Assembly: GCF_013394795.1 (NCBI RefSeq)
Contig: NZ_JABXYU010000001.1
Coordinates: 1,240,001 to 1,304,000 of the forward strand
Reading direction: 5' to 3'
Origin: Leptotrichia sp. oral taxon 223
GTDB lineage: Bacteria > Fusobacteriota > Fusobacteriia > Fusobacteriales > Leptotrichiaceae
Length of the DNA: 64,000 bases
Positions 27,261 through 48,682 of the stretch are shown here, in pieces. The notes below the pieces were generated by a model, which had not been told where the DNA came from, ran no database searches, and saw nothing but the letters and a program-made list of their open reading frames with translations. Numbering within the stretch: position 1 is the first letter of the stretch; the number at the start of each line of letters is the position of its first letter. A program made the translations under genes and the position numbers.

Positions 27261-27279
27261 AATTTTAAGGGATGATTTT

Positions 27280-28224: not shown

Positions 28225-28226
28225 TT

Positions 28227-29812: not shown

Positions 29813-29813
29813 T

Positions 29814-30681: not shown

Positions 30682-31146
30682 CTATCTTTTTATAGTTTCT
30701 TCCCAGTTTGCAGGATAAATCACATATAAAAATCTCGCAAAGTTAGGAGCGCTAAATTTGATTTTTGAACCTTTAGGAATTAAAATGGCATCTCCCCTGT
30801 TTCCTGTAACTTTATTTCCGTCAACTATAATTTCCAGCGTTCCATCTATTACATAGTCTATTTCATCATAATTCAGTTCCCAGTCAAATGCAGATTCTTC
30901 CATTTCCATAACTCCGCAGCTTAATCTTCCGCTTTCCTCTATTGTAAACACATCCGTCAAAAATACCTTATCATTCGGCTTTCCTGTATCAAATCTTTCA
31001 GGTTTTACAGTAGGAATTTTCACAACCCCGACTCCACTTTTATCAATATGCTTTTCAAATCCGCCGACTTTTCTGTTTAACTCTTCTTGTACTACTTTTC
31101 TAAGTATTTTTTCCAATGTTTCTCTGTCTAAATTTTTTAAATCCAT
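30682..31146 (-). CDS. eutQ: ethanolamine utilisation protein EutQ
   Basis: The 154-residue protein has an N-terminal amphipathic helix (LDRETLEKILRKVVQEEL, residues 5-22) resembling a microcompartment-targeting peptide, then a cupin domain (about 45-150) with DEIDYVIDGTLEI and GDAILIPKGSKIKF. EutQ homologues are shell-associated and have been reported to have acetate-kinase-like activity and to aid shell assembly. It is the last gene of the eut cluster. Confidence 0.93.
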   Translation of the reverse strand: MDLKNLDRETLEKILRKVVQEELNRKVGGFEKHIDKSGVGVVKIPTVKPERFDTGKPNDKVFLTDVFTIEESGRLSCGVMEMEESAFDWELNYDEIDYVIDGTLEIIVDGNKVTGNRGDAILIPKGSKIKFSAPNFARFLYVIYPANWEETIKR

Positions 31147-31169
31147 TGTTCTTCCTCCAAATTATTATA

Positions 31170-32315: not shown

Positions 32316-32350
32316 ATTTCATCTCCTCAGATAATCATTTTTTCACATTT

Positions 32351-33448: not shown

Positions 33449-33637
33449 TTTATATTCCTCCCAAATTTTCATTTAATTATTTTGTTTTAAATGAAAATAC
33501 TCAAAATTATGTTTATACAAGATTACTTCACATAAAATATCTTTTAGTTGCATTATCTCCCAATTATGCAGAAGTTCTAATAATAAAAATACAAGTAAAG
33601 TTATATTTATAGGAGCCTTTTCCCAAATATTTTAGAA

Positions 33638-33715
33638 AAATATAGAATTGCCTAACCAAAATAATTTTTTACCTAATGAAAATAGTATTATAAATTTACA
33701 AGGCAATTCTATTTA
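33638..33715 (-). terminator. long-stem hairpin between eutL and eutH
   Basis: ATAGAATTGCCT and AGGCAATTCTAT form a perfect 12-base inverted repeat with a 50-base loop. On the minus strand the second arm is followed by ATTTTTCT. It may partly terminate the upstream eut genes or stabilise the transcript end before eutH. The rest of the 350-base gap has repeat P copy 4 and AT-rich sequence. Confidence 0.5.
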
Positions 33716-33786
33716 TTGCTCAATCCTTTTCAAAATCAAACAGTCATAACTTTTTCAAGCCTGGTTTTAAAGTGATTTTACCATAA
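33716..33786 (-). repeat. palindromic dispersed repeat P, copy 4 (short)
   Basis: On the minus strand: TTATGGTAAAATCACTTTAA, AGTTATGACTGTTTGATTTT and the closing TTTGAAAAGGATTGAG. Lies right after the eutL stop codon. Confidence 0.6.
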
Positions 33787-33801
33787 TTAATGATTTGTTC
33801 A

Positions 33802-34455
33802 TTAATAAGTCAATGGATTGTCTGCCACAGATTTTACAGCTTCTGCAAACGCATCACACGCAGCCTTGCATGCAGATTGACTTCCTGTCAAAAGCCCTCC
33901 ACCAAAGTTTGTTTCTGAAGGCGGTCCATAAAATGCAACCAATCTCACATCGGCAGCTTTTAATGCAACATCCAGAGCATACATTGCTTCCAGCGGCGGC
34001 GCTATTAAGTAAGCCAGCGATTCACCTTCTTGGATTCCTGCTGTTTTTGATAAATAAGTTCCTGTTCTTGATATGCAATGTGCATAATATGCAATGCTGT
34101 CATCATCATTTGCGCTTATAAATGCCCCTTCATTTTCAATAAAGTCAACTGCAGCGGCAAGTCCGCTTTTTACTTCCGCAGGAGTAGGTCCCGACAAGAT
34201 TCCTATTACTTCTCCAGCCAGTTTTGTATTTGCATTTGCAGCCCCACCATAGAATGATTTTCCATAAGCCACGTCAACAACGGCTTTTTTCGTAGCTTCG
34301 TCCAGCGCTGTGTAAGTAACGTCATCGCAGTCTGCAGTTATAATACCTATACTTCTATGCTCATCAGGTAATTCCAGCTCTTTAGCCATATCTCTGTCCA
34401 CATTCGGAATTAATCTCACAGCTAATACATTAGCCTTTAGTCTATCGCCTTTCAT
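33802..34455 (-). CDS. eutL: microcompartment shell protein EutL (tandem BMC, trimer)
   Basis: The 217-residue protein begins KGDRLKANVLAVRLIPNVD and carries two BMC domains fused (about 10-105 and 115-215). EutL trimers form gated pores in the ethanolamine microcompartment facet. The ATG at 34453-34455 has AGGAGG upstream, so the longer frame with 13 extra residues is unlikely. Lies 62 bases after eutC. Confidence 0.95.
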   Translation of the reverse strand: MKGDRLKANVLAVRLIPNVDRDMAKELELPDEHRSIGIITADCDDVTYTALDEATKKAVVDVAYGKSFYGGAANANTKLAGEVIGILSGPTPAEVKSGLAAAVDFIENEGAFISANDDDSIAYYAHCISRTGTYLSKTAGIQEGESLAYLIAPPLEAMYALDVALKAADVRLVAFYGPPSETNFGGGLLTGSQSACKAACDAFAEAVKSVADNPLTY

Positions 34456-34517
34456 TGTTCCTCCTAAAAATGTTAATTTTATTTTTATTCTCAAAGTTCG
34501 GTTTATTTAAGTTATTT

Positions 34518-35459
34518 TTACAATTTCAAGTCCTGTCCACTTGCTTTTGCGTCAATTATTTTCTTAATCAATGTTGCAACGTGCGCCCCCGCTTCTGATG
34601 ATGGAGTTCCGTCCTTGTGAATATTTGACACAACTGTTCTTTTTGCTTCAGAAATTCCTGGACGAGCCTTGTAAGTAATGTAGGCGCTCATACTTTCCGC
34701 AGTTGTAAGTCCTGGACGCTCTCCAATTAATATGCACACAACATCAGCGTTCAGGATTTCTCCGACGTGATCTCCCGCTCCAACTCTTCCATATTTGATA
34801 AAGAATGGCGTACCAGTATCAATTCCATATCCTTTAAGCCCATTTAACATTGCAGGTATTATATTTTTAGCATTCGCTTCAATCGCAGTTGAACTTAGCC
34901 CGTCTGACACTACTATTTGCACTGTTGGATTTTTTTTACATTTTTCTTCTATGATTTTTATTCCTTCTTGTGAAATTTTTCTTCCCAAGTCAGGACGAGT
35001 TATATACTGATCTCTGCTTTCACACTCAGTAGTAACTTCAAATAATCCAAGTTCATCGAGAAATTCTGTAGGAACGTCATTAAATACGGCATCTTGCGCA
35101 GCGGCATGATCCGCTCTTAATCTTAACAGAACTTCCGTTTTCATTCTTGTTCCAGCTCTTCCGATTCCCAGCCTTGCAGATGTTTTCTGTTTTAATTTCA
35201 TATATTCTTCCCTGTCTTCAGGATTATCCACAAGCATCTGCTCTTTTATATTTATTTTTCCAATATCTCTTACTTCTCCATTTACAATGTGTGGATTTTC
35301 ACGTGGATTTTCATCTTGGTCATAAGTGGAACTTGTGCTGACAACTGGCGCTTTTTCTTCCATAACTGTGACAGATGTTTCTTTTGCTGGCGTTTCCTCT
35401 GTTTTTATTTCATTTATTATTTTTTCAATTACGTCTTTTAGTTCTCTTTCTGATAACAT
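34518..35459 (-). CDS. eutC: ethanolamine ammonia-lyase small subunit
   Basis: EutC with EutB splits ethanolamine into acetaldehyde and ammonia using adenosylcobalamin. The 313-residue protein has an N-terminal amphipathic helix ([16 protein letters not shown]) that should target the enzyme into the shell, an Ala/Pro/Thr/Val linker, and a catalytic B12-binding part ([51 protein letters not shown]). GGGAGG precedes the ATG. It lies 13 bases after eutB. Confidence 0.96.
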
Positions 35460-35472
35460 TGATTTTTCCTCC

Positions 35473-36837
35473 CTATTTTAAGAAAATTGAAGCATCTCCG
35501 GCTCTATCTGTAAGTTTTCCATCTTTCATTATTCCCATTTTTTCTAGCCATTTTTCAAAAGGTTTTATAGGTCTTCTGTTACATATGTCTCTTAATGTAG
35601 CATCATCGTGATAAGAAGATGTTTGATAGTTAAGCATGATGTCGTCTCCCGCAGGAATAGCCATAAAATAGTTACATCCTGCAACTGTCAATAATATTTT
35701 CAAATTTTCAATATCATTTTGATCTGCTTTCATATGGTTAGTATAGCAAGCGTCAACTCCCATTGAAATTCCTGTAAGTTTACCCATGAAATGATCTTCA
35801 AGTCCAGCCCTTATTACCTGTTTGCTGTTATAAAGATATTCCGGTCCGATAAATCCAACAACTGTATTTACGATAAACGGATCAAATTTTTTAGCAAATC
35901 CGTAACATCTTGCTTCCATTGTAACCTGATCGCATCCGTGGTGCGCATCCGACGACAGTTCTGAACCTTGTCCTGTTTCAAAGTACATTACGTTAGGCCC
36001 TGTCGCTGTTCCATGCTTTAATGCCAGTTCCCTTGCTTCCTGAAGCATATCTCCAGTTATACCAAATGCTTCATTTCCTTTTTCAGATCCTGCAATACTT
36101 TGGAAAATCAAGTCTGTAGGTGCTCCTCTTCTAACTGCTTCCATTTGTGTAGTTACGTGAGCCAATACGCAGATTTGTGTAGGAATTTGCCATTTAGTCT
36201 TGATTTCGTGGAATCTGTGCAACACTCTCATAACACTGTCAACACTATCATCAACTGGGTTTAATCCTAGTAATGCATCTCCTTGTCCAAAACTAAGCCC
36301 TTCATAAGTAGAAAGCATAATTCCATCTGGATCATCAGTAGTGTGGTTAGGTTGCAATCTTGTTGCAAGTATTCCTTCTCCACCTATTTCAGTATTACAG
36401 AATTTTTTAATTCTTATTTTGCTTGCTCCTTGAATAAGATCCATATTGCTCATAAGCTTGGCAACCGCCGCCACCATTTCACTTGTAAGCCCTTTGCTGA
36501 TTCTCTTTATATCGGCTCCTGTTGTATGCGAGTCCAAAATCCATTCCCTTAATTCACTTACAGTCCAGTTCTTTATTTCTCCATAAATTTTTTCATTTAC
36601 AGCGTCCTGTATAATTCTTGTAACTTCGTCTTCCTCATAAGGCACTGCAGGATTATTTCTCAAATCTCTCAATGTTAATTCAGCCAGTACAGCTTTTGCA
36701 GCAACTCTTTCTTCCGCTGTGCTTGCACTTACTCCCGCAAGTTCATCTCCTGATCTAAATTCACTTGCCTTATTCTGTACATCTTTTACAGATTTAAATT
36801 CATACGTATGTCCGAATAATTTAGTTTTTAATACCAT
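35473..36837 (-). CDS. eutB: ethanolamine ammonia-lyase large subunit
   Basis: The 454-residue TIM-barrel subunit binds ethanolamine and the adenosyl group. Diagnostic segments: [77 protein letters not shown], and [22 protein letters not shown] near the active site. The length matches the family exactly. Starts with GAGGTGG about nine bases upstream; eutA ends 31 bases before it. Confidence 0.97.
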
Positions 36838-36868
36838 TGTTACATGCCACCTCTCTAAATTTTTTTAT

Positions 36869-38299
36869 TTAATAACTGAATACCAATGTTTTTATTACAA
36901 CAGGTAAAACATTTCCATTTCCCAGTGGCGCTCCTATGTCAATATAATCTCCATCCCTCACTTTTACACTATCTATGCAGATTATATCATAGCCATCAAG
37001 CGCAAGTTTCATACATTGTCCCAATACTTTTGCCATATCGTTTTCAACTATGACGATTACAGGATGAGTTTTGTCATGTTTTCTTTTTATAACGTCTGAA
37101 ATTACCGAAGAGAGCTCCATTATGTCAGTATATGCCATATTATGCTTACCTTTAAAGGCAAGCGCCACATTTTCAATTTCATTTTCAGAGTTAAACCAGT
37201 TCAGCTTATCTTCAATAACCTTTCCTAATTGGCTATACGGCAAACTCTCATCCGATTCTGACAGTTTCAACACAGGAATATTTTTTACCGGGAAAATTCC
37301 TTCAGTATAAGTTATTGTGCTGCCGCTTATTTCTGTAGTATGGCTTCCTGCCCCAACCACTGTCGCTCCAATTGTTTCGCTTAATTTCAGGGGCTCTATA
37401 TTTAACTCTTTCAGGACTTTTACCATTTCCTCTCCAAAAATTACTCCTACATCGTTATACTTGTACAAGTCCTTTTCAGTTCTTCCATAAACAAAATCCG
37501 CAATTCCTCCAGTAAACGAATAATGCTCGATGTTGCCGTTATGTTTTCTAAAATCCTTATAAGTTACTATTTTACGATATAAATCAGTCTTTGGCAAAAG
37601 TTCAACGCTTTCAAAAATAAGCTGCGCCATTCTTCTCGTTATTTTTCTCAAGTCCTGCTCGCTTACTTTTCTGCCTAACTCCAGTTTTACATTCACATCA
37701 TCGGCAATATCGTACATTTTTTTGAAAATATAACGTGTGTTCCCGTTTTCATCAAATTTTATGAGCCGTCCTCCGATGTCAAGACAGGTAGTGTCTTCCA
37801 CTTCCCCTCTGTTGAAAACTGCAATGTTTGTAGTTCCTCCTCCAATGTCAAAGTTTACGATGCTCGTATTTTTCTGCTCAGAATATCCATAAGCTCCTGA
37901 ACCTTTTCCGGCGATAATACTTTCCAGATCGGGCCCTGCTGTCGCAACAACGAAATCTCCTGCCATTCCGCTAAGAATTTGCAGCACTTCCTTCGCATTT
38001 TCCTTTCTTGCCGTATCTCCTGTTATTATTACAGCCCCCGTTGAAACATCCTTGTATTGTATATTGGCTTTTCTGTATTCAGATTCTATTATTTCCTTAA
38101 CTTTTTTTGCATCTATTTTTGTTTCAGTTTCCAGTGGAGTAATATAAATGTCACTTCTATATATAACTTCTTTTCCTATTATTTTAAGCTGAGGCGCTGT
38201 AAATGCAGTCCCTCTGTTTTCAATGTAAATTTTTGAAAAAATAAGCTGTGTCGTAGAAGTCCCAATATCTATTCCCACACTTAATATTTCTTCTATCAT
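36869..38299 (-). CDS. eutA: ethanolamine ammonia-lyase reactivase EutA
   Basis: EutA is an ATP-dependent chaperone that removes inactivated cobalamin from EutBC. The 476-residue protein has the ASKHA-type phosphate loop at the start ([16 protein letters not shown]), a second nucleotide-binding segment [15 protein letters not shown], and a [10 protein letters not shown] motif. Lies between eutW and eutB as in Enterococcus and Clostridium eut clusters. Confidence 0.95.
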
Positions 38300-38346
38300 T
38301 GCATAAGACTCCTTTGTCTTTATTAATATTTACCTTACAAGATAAA

Positions 38347-39750
38347 TCAATTTTCAAAACCAAAGCTGATTTCTGTTCCTTTCTCTCCAGTCTTTATATC
38401 CAGATTCCCATAAAGTTTTTCCTTCACAAGGCTTTTAACTATCCTTAGCCCAATGCTTCCCTTTTCAAAATCCTTTTCATCCATTCCAATTCCATCATCG
38501 CTTATAGAAACATAAGATTTCATCTCTCCTCTTTTCACTTTAATTATTATATGTCCTCTGCTCCGTTCCTTAAAAGCGTGCTTTATACAATTTTCCACAA
38601 GTTCATTCACTATAAGGGCAATGGTTGTAGCCTTATCTGAATTAATTTCAAAGTTATCTCCAATTACATCTATTTTTAGTTTTAAGTGTCCCTCCAGATT
38701 TTCTCTCACCGAATTTTTCAGAATTTTATTTATGACTTCCTTGATTTTAAGCTCATCAAGTCCATTCTGAGCAAGCAGCTCGTGAGTTACCGAAATACTC
38801 AAAATCCTGTTTATGCTATCGCTGAATGCAGCCTTTACAGCCTTATCATCTGTTTTTCTTGCCTGTATCCTAAGCAAGCTTGCTATTGTCTGCAAATTAT
38901 TTTTCACTCTATGATGTATTTCCTTGATTACAACTGATTTTAAGACAAGCTCTTTTTCCTTGATTTTAATTTCAGTAATGTCCTTGATAAACAGAACTAC
39001 ATTTTTGACATTTTTTGTTTCCCTTATTAAAATGTATTCCAGGCTCAAAACCATATTTGATATGTTTACATCGGACTTTTCTTTTACTTTTCCGCTTAGC
39101 ACATCCTCAAATTCAACATCATCAATTACAATATTGTCAAACTTTTCTCCAAGGAAAAAATCCTTATAGCCTATCTTCCTGTACACATATTTTGCTCTGG
39201 AATTGGCATATATGCACACTCCTTCTTCATTAAAAATTATAATTCCATCATTAATATAGTCAATTATTTTTCTCTCCCGCAGCATTCCAACGGAACTCAT
39301 AAGAATTTCATCAGTAGCATTGTTTAAAAAACTTAGCTCCTTATTGATGCTTTCCTCATTCACGCCTTCCTCGACTATAAGAACGGCTATCACTGCACCA
39401 TCTGTTTTATCGCTTCTTATAGGCACCACATTTTGCGTAACACTTTTATTTTCCTGCGTCAATGCCTTGTAGTCTCGTGATGGATGTCCAGTTTCCAGCG
39501 TTCTTAATACCGCCGGCTCATTTTTTCTATAGGCAAATTTTCCTACAACGCTTTGAGTGTAACTTGAGCCTCTTCTTGGATTTGCCTCAGCAACCACAAT
39601 CGCCGTATCTCTGTGTTCTGTTGAACAGTCGATAAATACATCCGCTTTTAGCAGCTTGCTCATAACAGGCAGCCCCTCACATATTTTTTCCAGCTTTTCA
39701 ATATCCTTATTTGAAAGCTTCGTATATTGTTTACATATTGTTCTAAGCAT
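38347..39750 (-). CDS. eutW: ethanolamine-sensing histidine kinase EutW
   Basis: About 467 residues. The N-terminal H_kinase_N sensor domain (1-~150) is cytoplasmic with no membrane helices. A PAS-like region follows (about 170-265), then the phosphoacceptor His in KEIHHRVKNNLQTIASLLRIQAR (HisKA_2 type) and an HATPase domain with NELVENCIKHAF and DDGIGMD. EutW autophosphorylates on ethanolamine and passes phosphate to EutV. Overlaps eutV slightly. The second Met (39750) has GGAG at the better distance. Confidence 0.93.
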   Translation of the reverse strand: MLRTICKQYTKLSNKDIEKLEKICEGLPVMSKLLKADVFIDCSTEHRDTAIVVAEANPRRGSSYTQSVVGKFAYRKNEPAVLRTLETGHPSRDYKALTQENKSVTQNVVPIRSDKTDGAVIAVLIVEEGVNEESINKELSFLNNATDEILMSSVGMLRERKIIDYINDGIIIFNEEGVCIYANSRAKYVYRKIGYKDFFLGEKFDNIVIDDVEFEDVLSGKVKEKSDVNISNMVLSLEYILIRETKNVKNVVLFIKDITEIKIKEKELVLKSVVIKEIHHRVKNNLQTIASLLRIQARKTDDKAVKAAFSDSINRILSISVTHELLAQNGLDELKIKEVINKILKNSVRENLEGHLKLKIDVIGDNFEINSDKATTIALIVNELVENCIKHAFKERSRGHIIIKVKRGEMKSYVSISDDGIGMDEKDFEKGSIGLRIVKSLVKEKLYGNLDIKTGEKGTEISFGFEN

Positions 39751-40321
39751 TTTCATCTCCAGATAAAATTATAATATCGGCTATTTTTCCCATATCGCAC
39801 CTTTTGTTCATGCTAAGTGTCCTTATGTACTCATATGCTTCATTTTCAGTAAAATTCCTTGTTTTCATCAGAATGCTTTTAGCAATGTCAATTTTTTTCC
39901 TGTCCTCCAGCTTCTGACTTGTTTTTAAATACTTCTTTTCCAGTTCTTCAAACTCTTCCTGCTTGTTAAATATGATTTCCAAATTAGGAATAAAGGACTT
40001 TTCGTCGATGGGCTTCACTATATATCCTATTATTCCTATATTTTTTGCTTCTTCTATAAATTCCTTGTTGGAATAGGCCGTAAGTAAAACAACACCTCTA
40101 GACAATTTCTCCTTCGTTATTACTTTCGCCGCTTTCAGTCCATCCAGTATAGGCATTTTAATATCCATTATTACAAAATCCGGCTTATATTTTCTGCTTT
40201 GCTCTATTGCATCAAATCCATCTCCCGCCTCAGCAACTACATCGTAATTCGCTTCCTTAAGTATCTCGCATATGTCCATTCTCGTTATCGGTTCATCGTC
40301 TACAACTATTATTTTTCTCAT
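39743..40321 (-). CDS. eutV: ANTAR-type response regulator EutV
   Basis: The 192-residue protein has a receiver domain (1-~120) with acidic DDEP, phosphoacceptor Asp in FVIMDIKMP and Lys in VKPID. A coiled-coil linker leads to an ANTAR RNA-binding domain (about 140-185; RKKIDIAKSILMKTRNFTENEAYEYIRTLSM). Phosphorylated EutV binds paired hairpins with A1/G4 hexaloops and prevents terminator formation; such a site is seen at 48412-48543. Confidence 0.95.
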   Translation of the reverse strand: MRKIIVVDDEPITRMDICEILKEANYDVVAEAGDGFDAIEQSRKYKPDFVIMDIKMPILDGLKAAKVITKEKLSRGVVLLTAYSNKEFIEEAKNIGIIGYIVKPIDEKSFIPNLEIIFNKQEEFEELEKKYLKTSQKLEDRKKIDIAKSILMKTRNFTENEAYEYIRTLSMNKRCDMGKIADIIILSGDENA

Positions 40322-40343
40322 CTTTTCCCCTTTTCCTCCAAAT

Positions 40344-41462
40344 TTAATACAAATCTGCCAATAATTGTTTCATTTCAATTCTGCTAAATCTTCTTGGATT
40401 TTCTCCTGTACACATATCGTTTTCTATCTGATCAATCACACTTTCCATTTCAGAAAAATACTGATCTTCAGAAATTCCAAGTTCCCTCAGGCTGTTTGGT
40501 ATTCCCATTTTAACCGCTCTCATTTTAATAGCCTTTGCCAGAATTTCCACGCCTTGTGCATCTTCCTTAGGGTCAAATCCCAACGCTTCAGCAATTTCAC
40601 GGTAATATCTTGCCGCATCCTTATTTTGTGCGTTAAACTGTATAACTTTTGGCATTATTATTGCATTAAGCCTTCCATGTGGCTTGTGAAATCTTGCTCC
40701 CAGCGAATGTGCTATGCTGTGGTTTATTCCCAGTCCCGCATTGCTAAAAGCCACCCCTGCCATGCAAGACGCAATCTGCAAGTCAATTCTTTCCCTTTCC
40801 AGTTGCGGATTTTCAAAATTGCTTACCAAATCAGCAAATACTGTCTTTATCGCCCCTATCGCAAGCGTATTTGTAAACAGGTTTCTTGATTTTGAAACAT
40901 ATGCCTCTATAGCGTGTGTCAGCACATCCATTCCTGTGTCTGCAATTATTGATGGCGGAAGAGTTTTTATAAATTCTGGATTTAAGATTGCTATGTCAGG
41001 CAGCATTTCGCTGTCGCTTAAAGGTATTTTTTTACCTTGAGTAGTAACAACTGCATAAGATGTTACTTCTGAGCCAGTTCCGCTTGTTGTCGGTACTGCA
41101 ATGAATTTAGGCTTTCTATGTTCACCCATTGCCCTTTTTATCTGATTTGTAAAGTAAATCATTGATTTGCAGGCGTCTATCGGTGAACCTCCTCCCAGCG
41201 CTATTATGCAGTCAGGATCAAATGCACTAAGTTCAAGCATTCCTTTTATAATTTCTTCATCTGTAGGATCCGGCTTAACATCCGAATATATTTTGGCATC
41301 TATTCCTCTTGATTTTAAGATATTTGTTATTCTGTTTACAACTTTCAGCTTTACCATATTCCCATCTGTAACTAAAAATACTTTCTCCATTTCCAATGTT
41401 CTTAATATATCCAAAGAATTAGCGCCATAATGAATATCCGGTTTTATCTGAAATAAACCCAT
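40344..41462 (-). CDS. eutG: iron-dependent alcohol dehydrogenase EutG
   Basis: EutG reduces acetaldehyde to ethanol and recycles NADH inside the microcompartment. The 372-residue protein has the Fe-ADH signatures: VTDGNMVK, IALGGGSPIDACKSM (NAD-binding), TSGTGSEVTSYAVVT, DVLTHAIEAYVS and GINHSIAHSLGARFHKPHG with metal-binding His residues. The ATG at 41462 has AGGAAG at better distance than a GTG three codons upstream. Follows a 120-base gap containing repeat P copy 5. Confidence 0.93.
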   Translation of the reverse strand: MGLFQIKPDIHYGANSLDILRTLEMEKVFLVTDGNMVKLKVVNRITNILKSRGIDAKIYSDVKPDPTDEEIIKGMLELSAFDPDCIIALGGGSPIDACKSMIYFTNQIKRAMGEHRKPKFIAVPTTSGTGSEVTSYAVVTTQGKKIPLSDSEMLPDIAILNPEFIKTLPPSIIADTGMDVLTHAIEAYVSKSRNLFTNTLAIGAIKTVFADLVSNFENPQLERERIDLQIASCMAGVAFSNAGLGINHSIAHSLGARFHKPHGRLNAIIMPKVIQFNAQNKDAARYYREIAEALGFDPKEDAQGVEILAKAIKMRAVKMGIPNSLRELGISEDQYFSEMESVIDQIENDMCTGENPRRFSRIEMKQLLADLY

Positions 41463-41499
41463 CAAATCCACTTCCTTTCTATTGCATGCTCAAGCCCCT

Positions 41500-41590
41500 T
41501 TAATGTCCAGCTTAAAAGTAAATAATTCCAGGGATGAGCAAAATAGTCATAACTTTTAAATTTAGTTCTAAAGCAGTTCTACTGTAGTTC
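41500..41590 (-). repeat. palindromic dispersed repeat P, copy 5
   Basis: On the minus strand: CTACAGTAGAACTGCTTTAG and AGTTATGACTATTTTGCTC, closing with TTTACTTTTAAGCTGG. It begins over the last bases of the upstream 102-residue frame and fills most of the leader of eutG. Confidence 0.55.
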
Positions 41591-41887
41591 CTTTAATTTG
41601 GATAATATTTTCCGGACTGTTTCAGGATCTGTTATTTTGTAATCTTTTACGAGTATTTCAATCGCTTTCTTTTCCAAATCCTCACAATCCTTTCTCACAT
41701 CTTTTCTGATGTTATTTCCCGATTCACAGTTTGATTTGCAGCAAGATTTTTCATATCTTACTTCAACTCCCTGTTCCCTAATCATGTCCTTTGCCCCGGG
41801 AGTAATAATCATATCAGCCTGAACCACCAGTTCCTTATCTTGAACATATTCAAAAAGATTTTTTACCGTTATCAATCTTTTTCTCAT
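41579..41887 (-). CDS. small Cys-rich eut-cluster protein of unknown function
   Basis: The 102-residue protein has an N-terminal module KRLITVKNLFEYVQDKELVV then DMIITPGAKDMIREQGVEVRY, which resembles the first ~50 residues of the cluster's EutT (HITEKDILTPSAREFLNVKKIDFRI). This is followed by a Cys cluster (SCCKSNCES) and a charged C-terminal helix (about 65-102). It lies five bases after eutN. The helix and Cys cluster suggest a shell-associated or metal-binding accessory role, but that is inference. Confidence 0.6.
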   Translation of the reverse strand: MRKRLITVKNLFEYVQDKELVVQADMIITPGAKDMIREQGVEVRYEKSCCKSNCESGNNIRKDVRKDCEDLEKKAIEILVKDYKITDPETVRKILSKLKELQ

Positions 41888-41892
41888 TTTTT

Positions 41893-42162
41893 TTACTCCT
41901 TTTCTGATTCCAAACTGTCTATTATTCCTACAATAGTTGCGTCCACTGGAGTTTCAGCATCAAATATATGTCTTGCAGAGCTTCCTGTAACAATTATCAC
42001 TTTGTCACCTTGTCCAGCGCCAATGTAGTCAGCCGCCACCATTTTTCTGCTCCCACGTCCTTCATCTGTCCCTTCCACTTCAACTACCATAAGTTTCAGC
42101 CCTTTCAGTTTTTCATCTTTCCTTGTTGCCCAGACATTATCTACAACTTTTCCAATTAACAT
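41893..42162 (-). CDS. eutN: microcompartment vertex protein EutN (pentamer, EutN/CcmL)
   Basis: The 89-residue protein matches EutN/CcmL/CsoS4: LIGKVVDNVWATRKDEKLKGLKLMVV at the start and ADYIGAGQGDKVIIVTGSSAR in the middle. Pentamers cap the shell vertices. The ATG at 42160-42162 follows GAGGAAAATG; the longer frame would overlap the upstream gene. Only one vertex protein is encoded. Confidence 0.94.
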   Translation of the reverse strand: MLIGKVVDNVWATRKDEKLKGLKLMVVEVEGTDEGRGSRKMVAADYIGAGQGDKVIIVTGSSARHIFDAETPVDATIVGIIDSLESEKE

Positions 42163-42163
42163 A

Positions 42164-42808
42164 TCATTTTCCTCTTTCATAGCATAATTCAATGCTATTT
42201 TCTTTTATATAATCCATCGCAAGGGAAGTTATTTTACCTTTGCCATCAACTACAATCATCTGATTTCGAAGCCCTGAATCTCTAAGCCTTCTTTCTGTTA
42301 TCAGGCCTTTCAAATATACTTTTTCCTTGGCATTAAAAATATTTTTAACTTCCGTTCTTTTTACAACCTTTATTCCAAATTCCTGAACTTTTTTAACATA
42401 TTCATCATAAAGATTTATTAATGCGGCAGGCTTAGTATATTTTTTATATTCCAGCCCTTCTTCCACGATCACGATTTTGCCATCGTTAAAAAGAAATTCT
42501 GTTATAATGCTTTTTCTCCCTTGTGAAAGTTCAATCAGTTCATTTATTCCAAGTGTTGATACGACAAGTATTTTTTTATTTTCACATTGTCCAATGGCTT
42601 CCCATGTGCTGTCTAACTTTACATTTTCTACGAATGATGTTTCTTTTTTTAATTCGTCCTTTAAAATTTCATCATTTCCCAAAAAAGCCACTATTATTGA
42701 TTTTTTAGAAATAATCTCATTATTTTCAGACAAATTTTCATTTTCCCTTTTGGCAATTTCCTTTAACACTTCCCTTGCAAGCACTTCTATTAATTTCTGA
42801 GTATCCAT
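42164..42808 (-). CDS. conserved eut-cluster protein of unknown function
   Basis: The 214-residue protein occupies the slot between pduL and eutN that in Clostridium and Enterococcus clusters is held by a conserved hypothetical ethanolamine protein. The N-terminus TQKLIEVLAREVLKEIAKR is an amphipathic helix of the encapsulation-peptide type. The rest is an alpha/beta domain with alternating strands (IIVAFLGND, KILVVSTLGINEL, KIVIVEEGLEYKKY). No catalytic motif recognised. Probably a lumen protein. Confidence 0.65.
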   Translation of the reverse strand: MDTQKLIEVLAREVLKEIAKRENENLSENNEIISKKSIIVAFLGNDEILKDELKKETSFVENVKLDSTWEAIGQCENKKILVVSTLGINELIELSQGRKSIITEFLFNDGKIVIVEEGLEYKKYTKPAALINLYDEYVKKVQEFGIKVVKRTEVKNIFNAKEKVYLKGLITERRLRDSGLRNQMIVVDGKGKITSLAMDYIKENSIELCYERGK

Positions 42809-42835
42809 TTTATCTCCTCACAATGCTTTTTACAT

Positions 42836-43471
42836 CTATTTTTCAATACTTCCGACCACTCCTGAAGTATACCCGCAGGAATTGGCTTCATCAAAGTCAA
42901 TGTGCATGCTCAGTCTGAAATTATCCTTTACTCTTATTAAGACATCATCAAATATTAACGGCCTGTCGCTATGAATTTTTACTTTTACAGCTTCACCGTC
43001 CTTTACAGAAAATCTTTTTGCATCTTCACTTGTCATATGAATATGTCTTTTGGCAACGATGACGCCTTTATCCAGCTGCACGTACTTATCGCCTACACCT
43101 AGCAGTATTCCAGGCGTCCCTTCGATTTTTCCGCTTTCCCTTATCACTCCTTTGACTCCTATTTCACGGCAGTCGGTAAGCGATAATTCCACTTGTGAAA
43201 AATTTCTGCACGGCCCCAATATTGCAACGTTTGAAAACTCTCCTTTCGGCCCGATTACTCTGACTCTTTCCTTTGCCGCAAACTGTCCCGGCTGTGACAA
43301 TTCCTTTACAGGCGTCAGCTCGTAACCTTTCCCAAAAAGCGCTTCCACATGTTCTTTTGTAAGATGTACATGCCGTCCCGAAGCCTCAACCATAAAGGTG
43401 TCGTCCTTTTCTGCACCTAGGATTTCCTGTAATTTTTCTCTTATTATTCTCTCCAATTCATTTCTGTCCAT
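42836..43471 (-). CDS. pduL: phosphate acyltransferase PduL (EutD-equivalent)
   Basis: PduL converts acetyl-CoA to acetyl phosphate and frees CoA inside the shell, taking the place of EutD. The 211-residue protein has an N-terminal targeting helix (RNELERIIREKLQEILG). The two PF06130 repeats bring zinc-binding motifs ASGRHVHL (about 30) and VAKRHIHM (about 140), plus LTPVKELSQPGQFAAKERV and GPCR. Lies between eutT and the conserved hypothetical gene. Confidence 0.94.
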   Translation of the reverse strand: MDRNELERIIREKLQEILGAEKDDTFMVEASGRHVHLTKEHVEALFGKGYELTPVKELSQPGQFAAKERVRVIGPKGEFSNVAILGPCRNFSQVELSLTDCREIGVKGVIRESGKIEGTPGILLGVGDKYVQLDKGVIVAKRHIHMTSEDAKRFSVKDGEAVKVKIHSDRPLIFDDVLIRVKDNFRLSMHIDFDEANSCGYTSGVVGSIEK

Positions 43472-43492
43472 AGCATCTCCCGAAATTTGAGA

Positions 43493-44275
43493 TTATTTAT
43501 AATCTCCGTTATTTGCCTTTAGCATCATTAAGTACAATATACTGCTCAGACGGTTCAATGCCTTTAGCATATCCACCCTTTCCACTTTTCCTTCCTTGTA
43601 AAAAGCGTCAACTGCGGCAACTTCACATTCCCTCGACAAAGCTCTCAAATAATTTATATCAATAACTGATTCATCAAAATCTATGTTTATTTCAAACAGA
43701 TGCCCTGTTTTAAAATATTTTACCGTATTATGAGTTATGTCCTTTAATGTGTCAATATCGTATCCCAGCACATCCCTTTCCTGAAATTCCATATCAGTCA
43801 TTTCGCTTATAAACAGATCCCTCACGAATCTATATGTCTGTGCAAAGTCGCTTTCCAGCTTTTTATTTTTCTCATATTTTTTCCAATATTTTATTATTTC
43901 AGCCTGCAAAATATCAAATTTTCCTCTTAAAACGATTCTTTTATGATTTTTCACGACTAAATTATCTCCAAACAGCTGAGTCATAAATTCAGGCTTCTTA
44001 TCGTAAACCGCTCCTGTTATATAATCCCTGTACTGCCGTTTTTTAATAACTTTTTCTTCGGAAGCATTAGCCGGAGAATCTTTAACTTTGTTTTCAGCAG
44101 TCTTCTCATTATTGACAAATTTTTCCTGTGACTTCTTTATCCTGAAATCAATTTTTTTTACATTTAAAAATTCTCTTGCTGACGGTGTAAGGATGTCCTT
44201 TTCAGTTATATGTATTTTTTCAAGCTGCCCTTCCTTATCTAATTTTCTAAGCATTCCTTCTGTTATAACAGGCAT
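43493..44275 (-). CDS. eutT: EutT-type corrinoid adenosyltransferase
   Basis: EutT makes adenosylcobalamin from cob(II)alamin and ATP for EutBC. The 260-residue protein has the EutT N-terminal module (ITEGMLRKLD...ITEKDILTPSAREFL), a Lys-rich linker, and a C-terminal Cob_adeno_trans-like helical domain (about 125-255; GKFDILQAEIIKYWKK, RDLFISEMTDMEF, LRALSRECEVAAVDAFY, LNRLSSILYLMMLKAN). The HxxxC-like Cys/His metal motif of Salmonella EutT is not evident. Confidence 0.85.
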   Translation of the reverse strand: MPVITEGMLRKLDKEGQLEKIHITEKDILTPSAREFLNVKKIDFRIKKSQEKFVNNEKTAENKVKDSPANASEEKVIKKRQYRDYITGAVYDKKPEFMTQLFGDNLVVKNHKRIVLRGKFDILQAEIIKYWKKYEKNKKLESDFAQTYRFVRDLFISEMTDMEFQERDVLGYDIDTLKDITHNTVKYFKTGHLFEINIDFDESVIDINYLRALSRECEVAAVDAFYKEGKVERVDMLKALNRLSSILYLMMLKANNGDYK

Positions 44276-44292
44276 TTTTTATCACACCCTAT

Positions 44293-45768
44293 CTATTTTT
44301 TATAAATTCCGTCCAATACTTTTCTTATGATACTTTCTATATCACTCTCACTAATTTGTGAACTGCTTCCAGTATTCAGTCCACACTTGTCTGTACAGTT
44401 GCCTTCATTTTTCAATGCTTCCAGTTCCTTTGTCCCGTAAGCCACCCTTCTAATATTTATAAGATTTAAAGGCCCTATATTGTCAGAAGTTGCACTTCCT
44501 CCAACTGTTCCGCATCCTAATGTGAATGCAGGTATAAGGTTAGTTGTAGCTCCAACTCCTCCAAGTGCCGCAGGTGTGTTTACAAGCAGTCTTGAAACCG
44601 GTTTTTTCAAAGAAAATTCCCTTATGATATTTTCGTTGTTTGTGTGCATTGACATTGTATGTCCGATTCCTTCATTTTGGAGGATTTCTATGCATTTTTC
44701 ACACGCTTTTTCCCAAGTTTCCTCTATGAAAAATCCCAATACTGGACATAATTTTTCCCTTGAATAAGGATTTAAGTGTGAAACTTCCGTTTCTTCTGAA
44801 ATTAGAACTTTTGTAGTTACAGGAACTGTTATTCCCGCCATTGCAGCTATATACAAAGCTGTTTTTCCTACTATTTTCGGATTCATTGTATTGTTGGCCC
44901 TCATAAGGATTTTTCCAACTTTTTCCCTTTCGTCCTTGTTCAAGAAATATGCACCTTGCCGCTTCAATTCGTCCACAACCTGATGTTTTATTACTTCTTC
45001 CGTAACAATTGACTGCTCTGATGCGCAAATTACTCCGTTGTCGAAAGTTTTACTGTCTATTATTCTCTTAACCGCCTTTCTGATGTCTGCGCTTCTTTCA
45101 ATGAATGAAGGCCCGTTTCCCGGTCCTACTCCTATCGCAGGTGTTCCAGAGCTGTAAGCGGCTCTTACCATCGCTTCCCCGCCTGTCGCAAGAATCAATG
45201 AAGTTTTCTTGTGCTTCATAAGTTCCTGCGTTGCTTGCAATGTAGGCGTCTTTATAACTCCGATTAATCCTTTTGGAGCCCCTTTTCTTTCAGCAGCTCT
45301 TATTAGGTATTCAGCAGTTTTTATTATGCAGTTCTTCGCATTCGGGTGAGGACTTACGATTACCGCATTTCCTGCCTTTAATGAAATCATTATTTTGTAT
45401 ATTGTTGTGGAAGTAGGGTTTGTTGAAGGGATTAACGCTGCGATTATTCCCATTGGAACCCCTATTTCTGTTATTCCCTTTTCCTTATCTTCACAAATTA
45501 TCCCTTTTGTTTTCAAATCCTTTATAGTTTCATACACGCCAGCTGAAGCCAGTCTATTTTTCAAAACTTTGTCTTCCCAGCGTCCAAACCCTGTTTCTTC
45601 ATTGGCCAGTTTTGCCAGTTCCACTTCATGTTTTTGGGCTTCTTCACATATTTCCCTTACTATTTCATCAATTTGAGCTTGCGAGAACTGACTGTATTCT
45701 TCAAATGCCCTGCTTGCATCATTTAATAAATCCCTTACTTCCTGTATTGATTGCAAATCTTTATCCAT
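44293..45768 (-). CDS. eutE: CoA-acylating acetaldehyde dehydrogenase EutE
   Basis: EutE oxidises acetaldehyde to acetyl-CoA with NAD. The 491-residue aldehyde-dehydrogenase-fold protein has the catalytic Cys in FDNGVICASEQSIV (about 260), the NAD loop PSTNPTSTTIYK and GVGPGNGPSFIE. The N-terminal helix (LQSIQEVRDLLNDASRAFEEY) is the usual shell-targeting signal. The C-terminus adds a second amphipathic helix (SDIESIIRKVLDGI) after a Cys-containing linker, which is unusual. The ATG at 45768 has AAAGGA six bases upstream. Confidence 0.95.
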   Translation of the reverse strand: MDKDLQSIQEVRDLLNDASRAFEEYSQFSQAQIDEIVREICEEAQKHEVELAKLANEETGFGRWEDKVLKNRLASAGVYETIKDLKTKGIICEDKEKGITEIGVPMGIIAALIPSTNPTSTTIYKIMISLKAGNAVIVSPHPNAKNCIIKTAEYLIRAAERKGAPKGLIGVIKTPTLQATQELMKHKKTSLILATGGEAMVRAAYSSGTPAIGVGPGNGPSFIERSADIRKAVKRIIDSKTFDNGVICASEQSIVTEEVIKHQVVDELKRQGAYFLNKDEREKVGKILMRANNTMNPKIVGKTALYIAAMAGITVPVTTKVLISEETEVSHLNPYSREKLCPVLGFFIEETWEKACEKCIEILQNEGIGHTMSMHTNNENIIREFSLKKPVSRLLVNTPAALGGVGATTNLIPAFTLGCGTVGGSATSDNIGPLNLINIRRVAYGTKELEALKNEGNCTDKCGLNTGSSSQISESDIESIIRKVLDGIYKK

Positions 45769-45819
45769 AGTCTGTCCTTTCTGCAAATAACCGCTGTTTA
45801 CTGGTTATTTTTAGTTCTC

Positions 45820-46116
45820 TTATTCAGCCTCAGCTATTCTTGGCTTAGGCAGTATGCCTTCAATTTCATTATGAGGACGTGGTATTACATGAATTGAAAT
45901 TAATTCTCCAACTCTTTCAGCAGCCGCAGCCCCTGCATCTGTCGCAGCCTTTACAGCCCCGACATCTCCTCTTACTAGCACTGTTACCAGTCCTCCACCA
46001 ACGTGTTCCTTTCCAATCAAAGTTACATTGGCAGCTTTCACCATCGCATCTGCAGCTTCTATTGCAGCTACAAGCCCTTTAGTTTCAATCATTCCTAACG
46101 CATTTAATGTTGCCAT
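45820..46116 (-). CDS. eutM: microcompartment hexamer shell protein EutM, copy 1
   Basis: The 98-residue BMC-H protein starts [20 protein letters not shown] and has the pore region KEHVGGG. Nearly identical over the first ~85 residues to the copies at 47708 and 48009, differing at the C-terminus ([17 protein letters not shown]). Major facet protein of the ethanolamine compartment. Located between eutE and the EutK-like gene, so it may be expressed separately from the two leading copies. Confidence 0.95.
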
Positions 46117-46118
46117 CG

Positions 46119-46877
46119 TTATTCCTCCTTATTATTTCTTACTAAAATTTCTATCAATTTTTTCTTAGGCATCGTCTTTATTTGATTCCATGTGTAGCCA
46201 ATTTTAAGGTTGTTGACCTTTGTCTTTAAATCCACTACTTTCATGTCCTGATACTGTTTTTTTACCTTTTTTGTTTCCTCATCTTTTTTTTTTAAAGTTT
46301 CTGTTATTGAAACTTCTTCATTTTCCTGAATAATATTATTTTGGTTCCCTGTTTCTGCATTTTCCGTTATTTCCTGAACTGATTCTTCTATTATTCCTTC
46401 TGTTTCCGTTTCTGCAATATCTTCAGGCTGCTCTTTGATAAATTGGTTTTCATTTTCATTTTCAATATCTGCATTTTCATTTACTGCCTGCTCAATCACT
46501 TCTTCTGTCATTATTTGCACTTCAGTTTTTTCATTATCATTGTCCGATTTTTCAATAATGTCTTCATCGTTTTGCACATCGGCAGTTTTTTCATCAGATT
46601 TTTTTCCAATGTCACTTATCAGAATTTTCTTTGTTTCAGAAGCCACTCTTGCAATAACGTTACTGCTCAGGAAATTTCCAAGCCTTCTGGCACTTTCACT
46701 TGCGGCATCCACAGCGGCATTTACAGCAGCCACATCTCCCGCTACTTCAATGGTCACAATTCCACCTTTTACATAGTAGCAGTTTGTAAGTGTTACATCA
46801 GCTGCCTTCAAGGCAGCATCTGCAGCTTCTATTGCAGTCACAAGCCCCCGTGTTTCCACATATCCGTACGAATCCAT
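46119..46877 (-). CDS. eutK: EutK-like BMC protein with long acidic linker and C-terminal binding domain
   Basis: The 252-residue protein has an N-terminal BMC-H domain (1-~90; [23 protein letters not shown]). A ~115-residue linker follows that is extremely rich in Glu, Asn and Thr, then a basic C-terminal domain (about 205-252; [35 protein letters not shown]). E. coli EutK has a BMC plus a short nucleic-acid-binding C-terminal domain; here the linker is far longer and disordered. Two bases after eutM1. Shell minor component, function of the tail inferred. Confidence 0.75.
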
Positions 46878-46884
46878 CTATCTA

Positions 46885-47328
46885 TCACCTTCTAATCTGC
46901 TCGGAATCATCTTCCAAATATTTCACAAGTTCCTCAATCCCTTCATTCTCATAGGAACTTACAGCAAAAACTCGCTCAGCTCCTGCATTTTCCAATATTT
47001 CACGAGCCCTTTTCACATCTTTACCCAAATCAGTCTTAGTTACAATTCCGATTACAGGCTTTGTAAAAGCTGTTGAAAACCCTGGCGGAAACACATTATG
47101 CTCCTCGTCACACGCCTGCACCATCCCAATAACATCACAGTCATACGAGCTTACAATCAGCGCCTTGTAAAGCATCCTGTTTTCCATGTATTCGCCTGGA
47201 GTGTCAAGTATGTCATTGGAATATGTCAGCATCTGCGTTTTTTCATATTTTATGTCAAGTCCATGTATTCTCTGGGTTAATGTTGTTTTACCGCACATGG
47301 ATTTTCCTATCAAAAGTATCTTTTTCAA
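46885..47328 (-). CDS. eutP: EutP/PduV-family small GTPase-like protein
   Basis: The 147-residue protein has a P-loop (LIGKSMCGKTT) and G3/G4-type motifs (ILDTPGEY, VTKTDL). EutP homologues bind nucleotide, and in Salmonella EutP is reported to have acetate kinase activity; PduV is a shell-associated GTPase. The start is a TTG with GAGG upstream, almost overlapping eutS (two bases). No other start fits. Confidence 0.88.
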   Translation of the reverse strand: MKKILLIGKSMCGKTTLTQRIHGLDIKYEKTQMLTYSNDILDTPGEYMENRMLYKALIVSSYDCDVIGMVQACDEEHNVFPPGFSTAFTKPVIGIVTKTDLGKDVKRAREILENAGAERVFAVSSYENEGIEELVKYLEDDSEQIRR

Positions 47329-47330
47329 TT

Positions 47331-47681
47331 TTATGACCTCGTTATCTGAGTTATGCTAAATCTCAGGACATTTTCAAAATATGAAACCACCTCATTTACA
47401 GCGGCTTCTATACTTCCCACATCTCCGCTTATTACAACCGATCCTGTAAACCTGTCTACAAATCCTATTTCCACTTCGGCACTTTTCGTAGCCAGATCCG
47501 CCGCAATGATTGCTGCTTCTCCTGGAGTTATTGTGAGTATTCCTATTGCATTTGTCTTATTTTCAGAAAGTCCTATTTTTTTTGATAAATCTCTTTGCGG
47601 ATTTGCAATTATATGAGCCAGAGTCAACTGTCTGCCAGGTACGTATTCCTGAATCATTCTCTGTTTTTTTTCTTCTTCCAT
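47331..47681 (-). CDS. eutS: microcompartment shell protein EutS
   Basis: The 116-residue circularly permuted BMC protein has [25 protein letters not shown] near the N-terminus and [35 protein letters not shown]. EutS hexamers are bent by ~40 degrees and can seed shell edges. Third gene of the operon. Confidence 0.95.
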
Positions 47682-47707
47682 TTGACAAATCCTTTCTAAA
47701 ATTTATT

Positions 47708-47983
47708 TTATCTAGGCAAAATAGTTTCTACTTCCGCATGTGGACGTGGAATTACGTGAACTGAAATCAGTTCCCCAACTCTTTCAGCAGCCGCAGCTCC
47801 CGCATCTGTCGCAGCCTTTACAGCCCCAACATCTCCTCTTACAAGAACTGTTACAAGTCCTCCTCCTACATGCTCTTTCCCAATTAATGTCACATTTGCG
47901 GCTTTAACCATCGCATCTGCAGCTTCTATCGCAGCCACCAGCCCTTTTGTTTCTATCATTCCTAACGCATTTAATGTTGCCAT
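47708..47983 (-). CDS. eutM: microcompartment hexamer shell protein EutM, copy 2
   Basis: The 91-residue BMC-H protein, nearly identical to copies 1 and 3 and ending [10 protein letters not shown]. The ATG at 47983 has GGAGG at the right distance; a second ATG two codons upstream is too close to it. Near-identical at DNA level to copy 3 only 25 bases away, so a recent tandem duplication. Confidence 0.93.
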
Positions 47984-48008
47984 AGCCATTACCTCCTAAA
48001 ATTATTTA

Positions 48009-48293
48009 CTATTCTCTTCCTTTTGGCAAAATAGTTTCTACTTCCGCATGCGGACGTGGAATTACATGAATTGAAATCAGTTCCCCAACTCTTTCAGCAG
48101 CCGCAGCTCCCGCATCTGTCGCAGCCTTTACAGCCCCAACATCTCCTCTTACAAGAACTGTTACAAGTCCTCCTCCTACATGCTCTTTCCCAATTAATGT
48201 CACATTTGCAGCTTTAACCATTGCATCTGCAGCTTCTATCGCAGCCACTAGCCCTTTTGTTTCTATCATTCCTAATGCATTTAATGTTGCCAT
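48009..48293 (-). CDS. eutM: microcompartment hexamer shell protein EutM, copy 3
   Basis: The 94-residue BMC-H protein ends [11 protein letters not shown]. First gene of the operon, after the antiterminator leader. The ATG at 48293 has AGGAGG upstream; the longer frame into the leader is not supported. Confidence 0.93.
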
Positions 48294-48411
48294 GTCTTTC
48301 CTCCTGAAATTATTTTTTTTATTCAATAAATAATTTAATCCCAAATTCACCTCCTCGCTTTATTAATTAATAAATTTATATATACAAATTATTAATCATT
48401 GAAAAATAAAA

Positions 48412-48450
48412 AAGGAACTAAAAAATTTAAATAATTTCTCAAGCTCCTTT
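48412..48450 (-). terminator. intrinsic terminator in the eut leader (ANTAR-controlled)
   Basis: On the minus strand AAGGAGCT pairs with AGTTCCTT (eight pairs, one wobble) and is followed by TTTTTTATTTTT. Its first arm is part of hairpin P2, so the two are mutually exclusive. Confidence 0.7.
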
Positions 48451-48543
48451 GCTCCAAAATATTATTGTTCTTTATATTTTTATTTTTATTTGTAATTTTA
48501 TACCGTTATTTCATAAATTCACATTACTCCGTTGTAATATGTG
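48442..48543 (-). promoter_or_regulatory. ANTAR (EutV) antiterminator: hairpins P1 and P2
   Basis: P1 (48543-48520 on the minus strand) is an ATTAC/GTAAT stem extended by CAC/GTG with hexaloop AACGGA. P2 (48455-48442) is AGC/GCT with hexaloop AAAGGA. Both loops have A at position 1 and G at position 4, the published EutV recognition rule. P2 shares bases with the terminator at 48412-48450. The linker of ~64 bases is longer than usual. Confidence 0.7.
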
Positions 48544-48584
48544 TGCAAACCTCTTATTATTGAACTAATGAATCAAATAATACT

Positions 48585-48650
48585 GAGGTTTAAGTAAAAT
48601 AATTATAGTTTTTAAATTCAATTTCAAAATGAAATTATTATAACTTCTAT
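48585..48650 (-). repeat. palindromic dispersed repeat P, diverged copy 8
   Basis: On the minus strand TTTTGAAATTGAATTTAAAA and ACTATAATTATTTTACTTAAA match the central part of the family. It lies in the leader between the eut promoter and P1. Confidence 0.4.
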
Positions 48651-48654: not shown

Positions 48655-48682
48655 AGTATACTATGATTTTTCATTTTGTCAA
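48655..48682 (-). promoter_or_regulatory. promoter of the eut operon
   Basis: On the minus strand TTGACA (48682-48677), 16 bases, TATACT (48660-48655). Predicted transcript start about 48648, giving a leader of ~355 bases that holds P1, P2 and the terminator. Confidence 0.6.

What the first reader, a model, noticed from the sequence alone, without database searches (positions are those of the whole stretch)
48412..48543. EutV antiterminator site with A1/G4 hexaloops in the eut leader
P1 (loop AACGGA) and P2 (loop AAAGGA) both satisfy the A1/G4 rule of ANTAR targets. P2 shares its 3' half with an eight-base-pair terminator ending in a T run. EutV and EutW are encoded in the same cluster. This predicts ethanolamine-induced antitermination of the whole 48.3 to 41.6 kb segment. 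The ~64-base spacing between hairpins is longer than in the described examples.
Basis: partly seen in the sequence, partly recalled or inferred. Interest (0 to 1): 0.6.

Follow-up and report, generated by a model that had tools for sequence, protein, structure and literature searches.

The report
EutV leader with widely split hairpins
The RNA leader of a Leptotrichia ethanolamine-use operon carries the two-hairpin on-switch read by the regulator EutV, but with its halves 45 to 127 bases apart (loop to loop) in every related genome that keeps EutV, farther than published tests on another species say the switch can tolerate.

Summary
The site is real. In the minus-strand leader of the eut operon, P1 CATATTAC[AACGGA]GTAATGTG (48541-48520) and P2 GAGC[AAAGGA]GCTT (48454-48441) both obey the A1/G4 rule, and P2 overlaps an intrinsic terminator. 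Corrections: the terminator is 9+8 bp, not 8; P2 can extend to 14 bp; no second terminator/ANTAR site exists at 41.5 kb, so the switch probably governs the whole 22-gene run (48.3 to 30.7 kb), eutVW included. The refutation test (loss of a hexaloop in relatives that keep the cluster) came out in favour: all 12 EutV-encoding Leptotrichiaceae genomes held (7 Leptotrichia, 4 Sebaldella-type, 1 other genus) keep both hexaloops; a relative without any ANTAR protein keeps only a decayed copy. The unusual point is spacing: 71-83 nt loop to loop in Leptotrichia, 45 in the other genus, 119-127 in Sebaldella, against 15-22 in Fusobacteriaceae eutA leaders. Published E. faecalis work reports that a 14-nt linker, or 20 added nt, breaks EutV antitermination. 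So this is a member of a known kind with a variant geometry: P1 as a (usually 5'-terminal) recruitment hairpin acting at a distance. Function is inferred, not shown.

The parts
48655..48682 (-). sigma-70-type promoter TTGACA-16-TATACT; transcript probably starts near 48648
   Evidence: Sequence; the block around it is nearly invariant in 7 Leptotrichia species. TSS position inferred.
48545..48645 (-). about 101-nt insertion found only in the window species, separating promoter and P1; carries a copy of an interspersed repeat and a hairpin AACCTC..GAGGTT (48590-48548)
   Evidence: Absent in 6 other Leptotrichia, where the -10 box to P1 loop distance is 19-20 nt against 121 here; repeat copies elsewhere in own genome.
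48520..48541 (-). P1 hairpin CATATTAC[AACGGA]GTAATGTG, A1/G4 hexaloop, AC/GU closing pairs
   Evidence: A1 and G4 invariant in 7/7 Leptotrichia while loop positions 3, 5, 6 vary; stem covariation.
48467..48519 (-). A-rich, unstructured linker (53 nt, 62% A)
   Evidence: 11 of 53 columns invariant against 10 of 13 in the top of P1 and 26 of 31 in P2; no folding beyond shuffles.
48430..48466 (-). P2 antiterminator hairpin; core GAGC[AAAGGA]GCTT at 48454-48441, outward extension to 14 bp
48402..48450 (-). intrinsic terminator (9 + 8 bp with one unpaired G) and T run; its 5' arm starts at P2 loop base A1, so it excludes P2
   Evidence: 35 of 40 stem-loop columns invariant in 7 species.
48009..48293 (-). 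first gene of the operon, EutM-type shell protein (ATG at 48293)
   Evidence: NCBIfam EutM model 131.9 bits, just under its 133 cut-off.
39743..40321 (-). eutV, response regulator with ANTAR domain, the only ANTAR protein in the genome
   Evidence: Pfam Response_reg and ANTAR; one ANTAR match in the whole genome; E = 2.7e-56 to E. faecalis EutV 6wsh.
38347..39756 (-). eutW, sensor histidine kinase (GAF_PdtaS, HisKA_2, HATPase)
30682..48293 (-). putative single transcription unit, 22 eut/BMC genes from eutM to eutQ; only two internal gaps over 100 nt (41472-41578, 33473-33801), neither with a hexaloop/terminator site
   Evidence: Co-transcription inferred.

Best explanation
This is a EutV-dependent transcription antitermination leader. 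Without ethanolamine, RNA polymerase that starts at 48.65 kb stops at the terminator about 240 nt later (about 140 nt in relatives without the insertion), leaving a basal trickle of eutVW. With ethanolamine, EutW phosphorylates EutV; the EutV dimer first binds the A1/G4 loop of P1 near the 5' end of the RNA, is carried on a 45-60-nt A-rich tether, and captures the P2 loop as it emerges. That locks the 5' arm of the terminator in P2 and lets polymerase read through the whole eut operon, including eutVW (positive feedback). Shown here: anatomy, mutual exclusion of P2 and terminator, conservation, covariation, co-occurrence with EutV, long spacing. Inferred: EutV binding, ethanolamine response, P1 acting on P2 at a distance.
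For: Both hexaloops kept in 7/7 Leptotrichia with EutV; in P1 the loop changes only at positions 3, 5 and 6. P1 stems covary (0/500 shuffles reach the score, for 11 Leptotrichiaceae and for 22 fusobacterial sequences). P2 pairs covary. A covariance model of P2+terminator gives strong hits (60 bits or more) in 11 of 12 EutV-encoding Leptotrichiaceae; the twelfth (G014) has a weaker 30.9-bit hit that is a clear dual hexaloop+terminator ahead of its pdu-eut supercluster. Among 21 EutV-less genomes the only strong hit is a decayed relic in G021, which has no ANTAR protein. EutV keeps RNA-contact residues R142, K143, K149, E160, Y164, R168, M172, N173, R175 of 6wsh. Fusobacteriaceae carry canonical dual sites in the eutW-eutA gap, which fits the report that in F. 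nucleatum the genes from eutA onward are ethanolamine-induced in a EutV-dependent way while eutSPVW are not (PMC11796344).
Against: E. faecalis work: natural linkers 5-12 nt, a 14-nt linker drastically reduced induction (PMC3369931), and 20 added nt abolished antitermination in vitro (PMC8934654). Here the single-stranded linker is 47-59 nt in Leptotrichia. In L033, L034 and L036 the uninterrupted P1 stem is only 3 bp and needs a bulged T to continue. In L035 loop base A1 can pair with U6. No expression data exist for this organism.
Confidence: 0.78

Rival explanations
1. P2 alone is the working EutV site in this family. Its 14-bp extension lets one bound EutV dimer win against the terminator, and P1 is a separate EutV-binding or 5'-protective hairpin not needed for antitermination.
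For: P2 extends to 14 bp here, unlike the 3-5 bp found in Fusobacteriaceae; P1 sits at a fixed 19-20 nt from the -10 box in six Leptotrichia but at any distance from P2; Sebaldella eutA leaders have P2+terminator with no nearby P1.
Against: P1 keeps exactly the EutV-recognised features (A1, G4, AC/GU closing pairs) in 12/12 genomes and stays intact in the window species although an insertion moved it 101 nt from the promoter; in E. faecalis P1 deletion ablated induction (PMC3369931).
Confidence: 0.3
2. The linker folds so that P1 and P2 are brought close, restoring canonical geometry.
For: Sebaldella linkers of 107-115 nt contain stems (L050 z = -3.4; L052 z = -0.6).
Against: The seven Leptotrichia linkers are 48-68% A with predicted energies no better than shuffles (z -0.4 to +1.8).
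Confidence: 0.12
3. P1 is a chance or promoter-related sequence and the leader is an ordinary attenuator not controlled by EutV.
For: P1 lies at a fixed distance from the promoter in relatives; A1/G4 hexaloops can be conserved for other reasons (the EutW G1 box SDNGVG encodes one).
Against: Stem covariation, retention after displacement by the insertion, and restriction of strong P2 hits to EutV-encoding genomes apart from one relic.
Confidence: 0.05

Closest known systems
Enterococcus faecalis eut leaders (eutP, eutG, eutS, eutA) bound by EutV (PMC3369931, PMC8934654)
   Same: Two A1/G4 hexaloop hairpins, AC/GU closing pairs on P1, P2 overlapping the 5' arm of an intrinsic terminator, EutVW encoded in the cluster.
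   Different: Linker 5-12 nt there against 53 nt (65 nt between core stems) here; four sites there against one here; P2 can be extended to 14 bp here; no B12-riboswitch sRNA seen in this cluster.
   Same: Same P2 core GC[AANGNN]GC and terminator; same AC..GU P1.
   Different: P1 is adjacent (15-22 nt loop to loop) and the site precedes eutA, so eutSPVW are outside its control.
ANTAR-target RNAs of actinobacteria (PMC8164766)
   Same: Dual stem-loops with A1/G4 hexaloops.
   Different: That survey accepted linkers of 2-25 nt only, so sites like this one would be left out.

Membership tests
EutV/ANTAR dual-hexaloop antiterminator | Two hairpins of at least 3 bp, each with a six-base loop having A1 and G4 | tested here: met
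   12/12 EutV-encoding Leptotrichiaceae.
EutV/ANTAR dual-hexaloop antiterminator | P2 overlaps and excludes an intrinsic terminator | tested here: met
EutV/ANTAR dual-hexaloop antiterminator | Closing pairs of P1 AC/GU as in Enterococcus, Listeria and Clostridium | tested here: met
   scan, which did not impose the closing pairs.
EutV/ANTAR dual-hexaloop antiterminator | Short linker between P1 and P2 (5-12 nt in E. faecalis; 2-25 nt in actinobacterial curation) | tested here: not met
   53 nt (65 nt between core stems) in the window; 45-127 nt loop to loop across the family. Treated as a geometry reported for one species and a curation limit, not as identity-defining; hence filed as a variant.
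EutV/ANTAR dual-hexaloop antiterminator | Cognate ANTAR response regulator in the genome | tested here: met
   Single ANTAR protein, encoded in the operon.
EutV/ANTAR dual-hexaloop antiterminator | Phospho-EutV binds the RNA and suppresses termination | not testable with these tools
   Needs binding and transcription assays.
EutV/ANTAR dual-hexaloop antiterminator | RNA-contact residues of EutV conserved | tested here: met
   Nine contact residues kept; K147 is I and R177 is D in Leptotrichia (residues placed by motif because the position columns printed are offset by two).

The most novel reading that the evidence does not exclude
In Leptotrichiaceae the ANTAR site is split into a promoter-proximal loading hairpin (P1) and a remote antitermination hairpin (P2) joined by a long tether whose length and sequence are free to vary. 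EutV would then work by sequential loading and hand-over rather than by bridging two adjacent hairpins, and the family's EutV has relaxed the spacing rule measured in E. faecalis.
Probability: 0.45. Interest if true: 0.62.

Novelty: new variant of a known kind. Interest (0 to 1): 0.5.

Why it matters
Whether EutV must touch both hairpins at close range, and why two hairpins are needed when the crystal structure says one dimer cannot hold both at once, is an open question in the ANTAR field (PMC8934654). A family in which the two hairpins sit 45-127 nt apart (loop to loop) in every EutV-encoding genome is a natural experiment that can decide between bridging and sequential hand-over. It also means that published searches with short-linker limits miss real ANTAR targets, and it supplies a testable mechanism for fusobacterial eut control, which the F. 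nucleatum study left open.

Tried and rejected
Rfam scans gave nothing at the site. A site upstream of eutG (41.47-41.58 kb): the gap is absent in three relatives and has no hexaloop/terminator, rejected. A site upstream of eutH (33.5-33.8 kb): a long-loop terminator-like hairpin TAGAATTGCCT..AGGCAATTCTA in five Leptotrichia (and in G014), a different one in two, no hexaloop, rejected as ANTAR. A P1-like hairpin 140-177 nt upstream of most eutA P2 sites proved to be the EutW G1-box codons (SDNGVG), rejected. K147I as the cause of relaxed spacing: all Leptotrichiaceae EutV have it, but so does L066, which has a canonical linker, so not claimed. In G014 no site lies directly before its first eut shell gene; it was found about 8 kb upstream, ahead of pdu genes. 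The P1 alignments A3 and A5 were gathered with a pattern that already requires A1/G4 and A[C/T]..GT, so only their outer stem pairs count as independent evidence.

Full report
Observation. Read on the minus strand, the leader ahead of the first eut gene (ATG at 48293) has a good sigma-70-type promoter (TTGACA-16-TATACT, 48682-48655), P1 CATATTAC[AACGGA]GTAATGTG (48541-48520), an A-rich stretch, P2 GAGC[AAAGGA]GCTT (48454-48441) and a terminator with a T run (48450-48402). Two details change. The terminator is 9+8 bp with one unpaired G, -13.4 kcal/mol. P2 can be extended to a 14-bp hairpin AATAAT[A]TTTT[G]GAGC/GCTT[G]AGAAATTATT, -8.9 kcal/mol in the nascent strand. P2 and terminator exclude each other because the terminator's 5' arm begins at loop base A1 of P2.

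Chance. A scan for an A1/G4 hexaloop with a 4-bp stem overlapping a terminator finds one in the 64-kb window (both strands), this one. Thirty dinucleotide shuffles give 0.47 per window, and 0.07 with an upstream P1. That alone is modest; comparison is what makes it strong.

Comparison within the genus. Seven of 13 species genomes have EutV at over 90% identity. All seven keep the leader. In a global alignment the top of P1 (TTAC-loop-GTA) has 10 of 13 invariant columns, the linker 11 of 53, extended P2 26 of 31 and the terminator 35 of 40. In the P1 loop A1, A2 and G4 never change and positions 3, 5 and 6 do, the pattern expected for an ANTAR loop.

Comparison within the family. A covariance model of P2+terminator was run on 33 Leptotrichiaceae genomes. 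Strong hits (60 bits or more) fall in the seven EutV-encoding Leptotrichia (one each), in four Sebaldella-type genomes with EutV (two each: operon leader and eutA leader), and in G021. G021 has no ANTAR protein (the same search finds EutV in the window's genome); its leader is followed by a broken eutM start and its P2 stem has lost pairing beyond two G-C pairs, so it reads as a relic left after the operon was lost. The remaining EutV-encoding genome, G014, gave a weak hit (30.9 bits) that on reading is a clear site: P1 ATTTAC[AATGGG]GTAAGC and P2 GAGC[AAAGAG]GCTT with a terminator, placed ahead of pduB/pduCDE-type genes followed by the eut genes (pdu names from the encoded sequences, not scored against a library). 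The Sebaldella operon leaders have P1 TCTGAC[AATGGA]GTTAGA shortly after the promoter.

Spacing. Loop-to-loop distances are 71-83 nt in Leptotrichia, 45 in G014 and 119-127 in Sebaldella, against 15-22 nt at the eutW-eutA sites of Fusobacteriaceae. Leptotrichia linkers are 47-59 nt, A-rich and predicted unstructured (z -0.4 to +1.8); one Sebaldella linker is folded (z -3.4) and the other tested is not (z -0.6). Published E. faecalis work gives natural linkers of 5-12 nt, loss of induction at 3 or 14 nt (PMC3369931) and no antitermination in vitro with 20 nt added (PMC8934654). An actinobacterial survey accepted 2-25 nt (PMC8164766). The Leptotrichiaceae sites lie outside all of these.

Structure evidence. 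Stem pairs of P1 covary beyond every shuffle for the 11 distinct Leptotrichiaceae sequences and for all 22 fusobacterial sequences, and the slid structures score lower; P2 does the same. Caution: the P1 rows were gathered with a pattern requiring A1, G4 and most of the closing pairs, so only the outer pairs are independent evidence, and in L033, L034 and L036 the stem needs a bulged T beyond 3 bp (MFE folds).

Position of P1. In six Leptotrichia the P1 loop starts 19-20 nt after the -10 box, so P1 is the 5'-terminal hairpin. In the window species an insertion of about 101 nt, carrying a copy of an interspersed Leptotrichia repeat, moved P1 to 121 nt from the -10 box, yet P1 kept an 8-bp stem and both key loop bases. 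That argues against P1 being conserved only as promoter-proximal DNA.

Protein. The window EutV is the genome's only ANTAR protein and aligns end to end with E. faecalis EutV 6wsh. Placed by motif, R142, K143, K149, E160, Y164, R168, M172, N173 and R175 are kept; K147 is I and R177 is D in Leptotrichia.

What is controlled. From 48293 to 30682 there are 22 eut/BMC genes on one strand with only two gaps over 100 nt, neither with a hexaloop/terminator site. The own genome has a single model hit. The simplest reading is one switch for the whole operon including eutVW. In Fusobacteriaceae the site sits before eutA instead, which agrees with the F. nucleatum observation that genes from eutA onward respond to ethanolamine and EutV while eutSPVW do not (PMC11796344); that paper states that the antitermination mechanism remains to be examined.

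Mechanism and verdict. EutV antitermination of the operon: likely (0.78). How P1 works over the distance is open. A 5'-proximal recruitment hairpin delivering a EutV dimer to P2 fits the sequential model proposed from the RNA-bound EutV structure (PMC8934654) but conflicts with the spacing limits measured in E. faecalis; P2 acting alone, with its long extension, is the main rival. Filed as a new variant of a known kind, interest 0.5.

Noticed in passing
window 12543-12567 (+), 33742-33753 (-), 41545-41556 (-), 48588-48640 (-): An interspersed repeat of Leptotrichia (core near TTATGACTATTTTACTTAAAC, part of a 60-75-nt element): 24 matches with up to 3 mismatches in the genome against 7 for the reversed control; shorter matches to the core AAAGTTATGACT lie in the eutG and eutH gaps, and one copy sits inside the eut leader insertion.
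   Followed up: partly
window 33473-33801 (-): Gap before eutH holds a long-loop terminator-like hairpin TAGAATTGCCT..AGGCAATTCTA, kept in five Leptotrichia and in G014, replaced by a different hairpin in two; not an ANTAR site, possibly an attenuator or processing site.
   Followed up: partly
L097 2920-3100 and 3178-11155 (genome G014): In another Leptotrichiaceae genus the EutV-type leader stands ahead of a diol-dehydratase (pdu-type) cluster that runs into the eut operon, suggesting one EutV switch for both pathways.
   Followed up: partly
L051 7660-7770 and L052 13970-14090: Sebaldella eutA leaders have P2 and terminator but no nearby hexaloop P1; AAAACAC upstream of P2 can pair either with GTGTTTT further upstream or with GGTGTTTT in the terminator, a possible different switch.
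   Followed up: no
L053 9968-10516 and L054 9536-10084: Second EutV-like protein (46-48% identity) with its own EutW-like kinase in two Sebaldella genomes, outside any eut cluster.
   Followed up: no
eutW of Fusobacteriaceae loci, e.g. L058 about 170 nt upstream of its eutA P2: The histidine-kinase G1 box SDNGVG is encoded by TCTGACAATGGAGTTGGA, which forms a perfect A1/G4 hexaloop hairpin: a coding false positive for ANTAR-site scans.
   Followed up: yes
window 48009-48293, 47708-47989, 45820-46116 (-): Three nearly identical EutM-type shell genes in one operon, two of them in tandem.
   Followed up: no
window 25229-25367 (+): Cobalamin riboswitch ahead of an ABC peptide/metal-type transporter operon (25528-30584) that abuts the 3' end of the eut operon on the opposite strand.
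   Followed up: no
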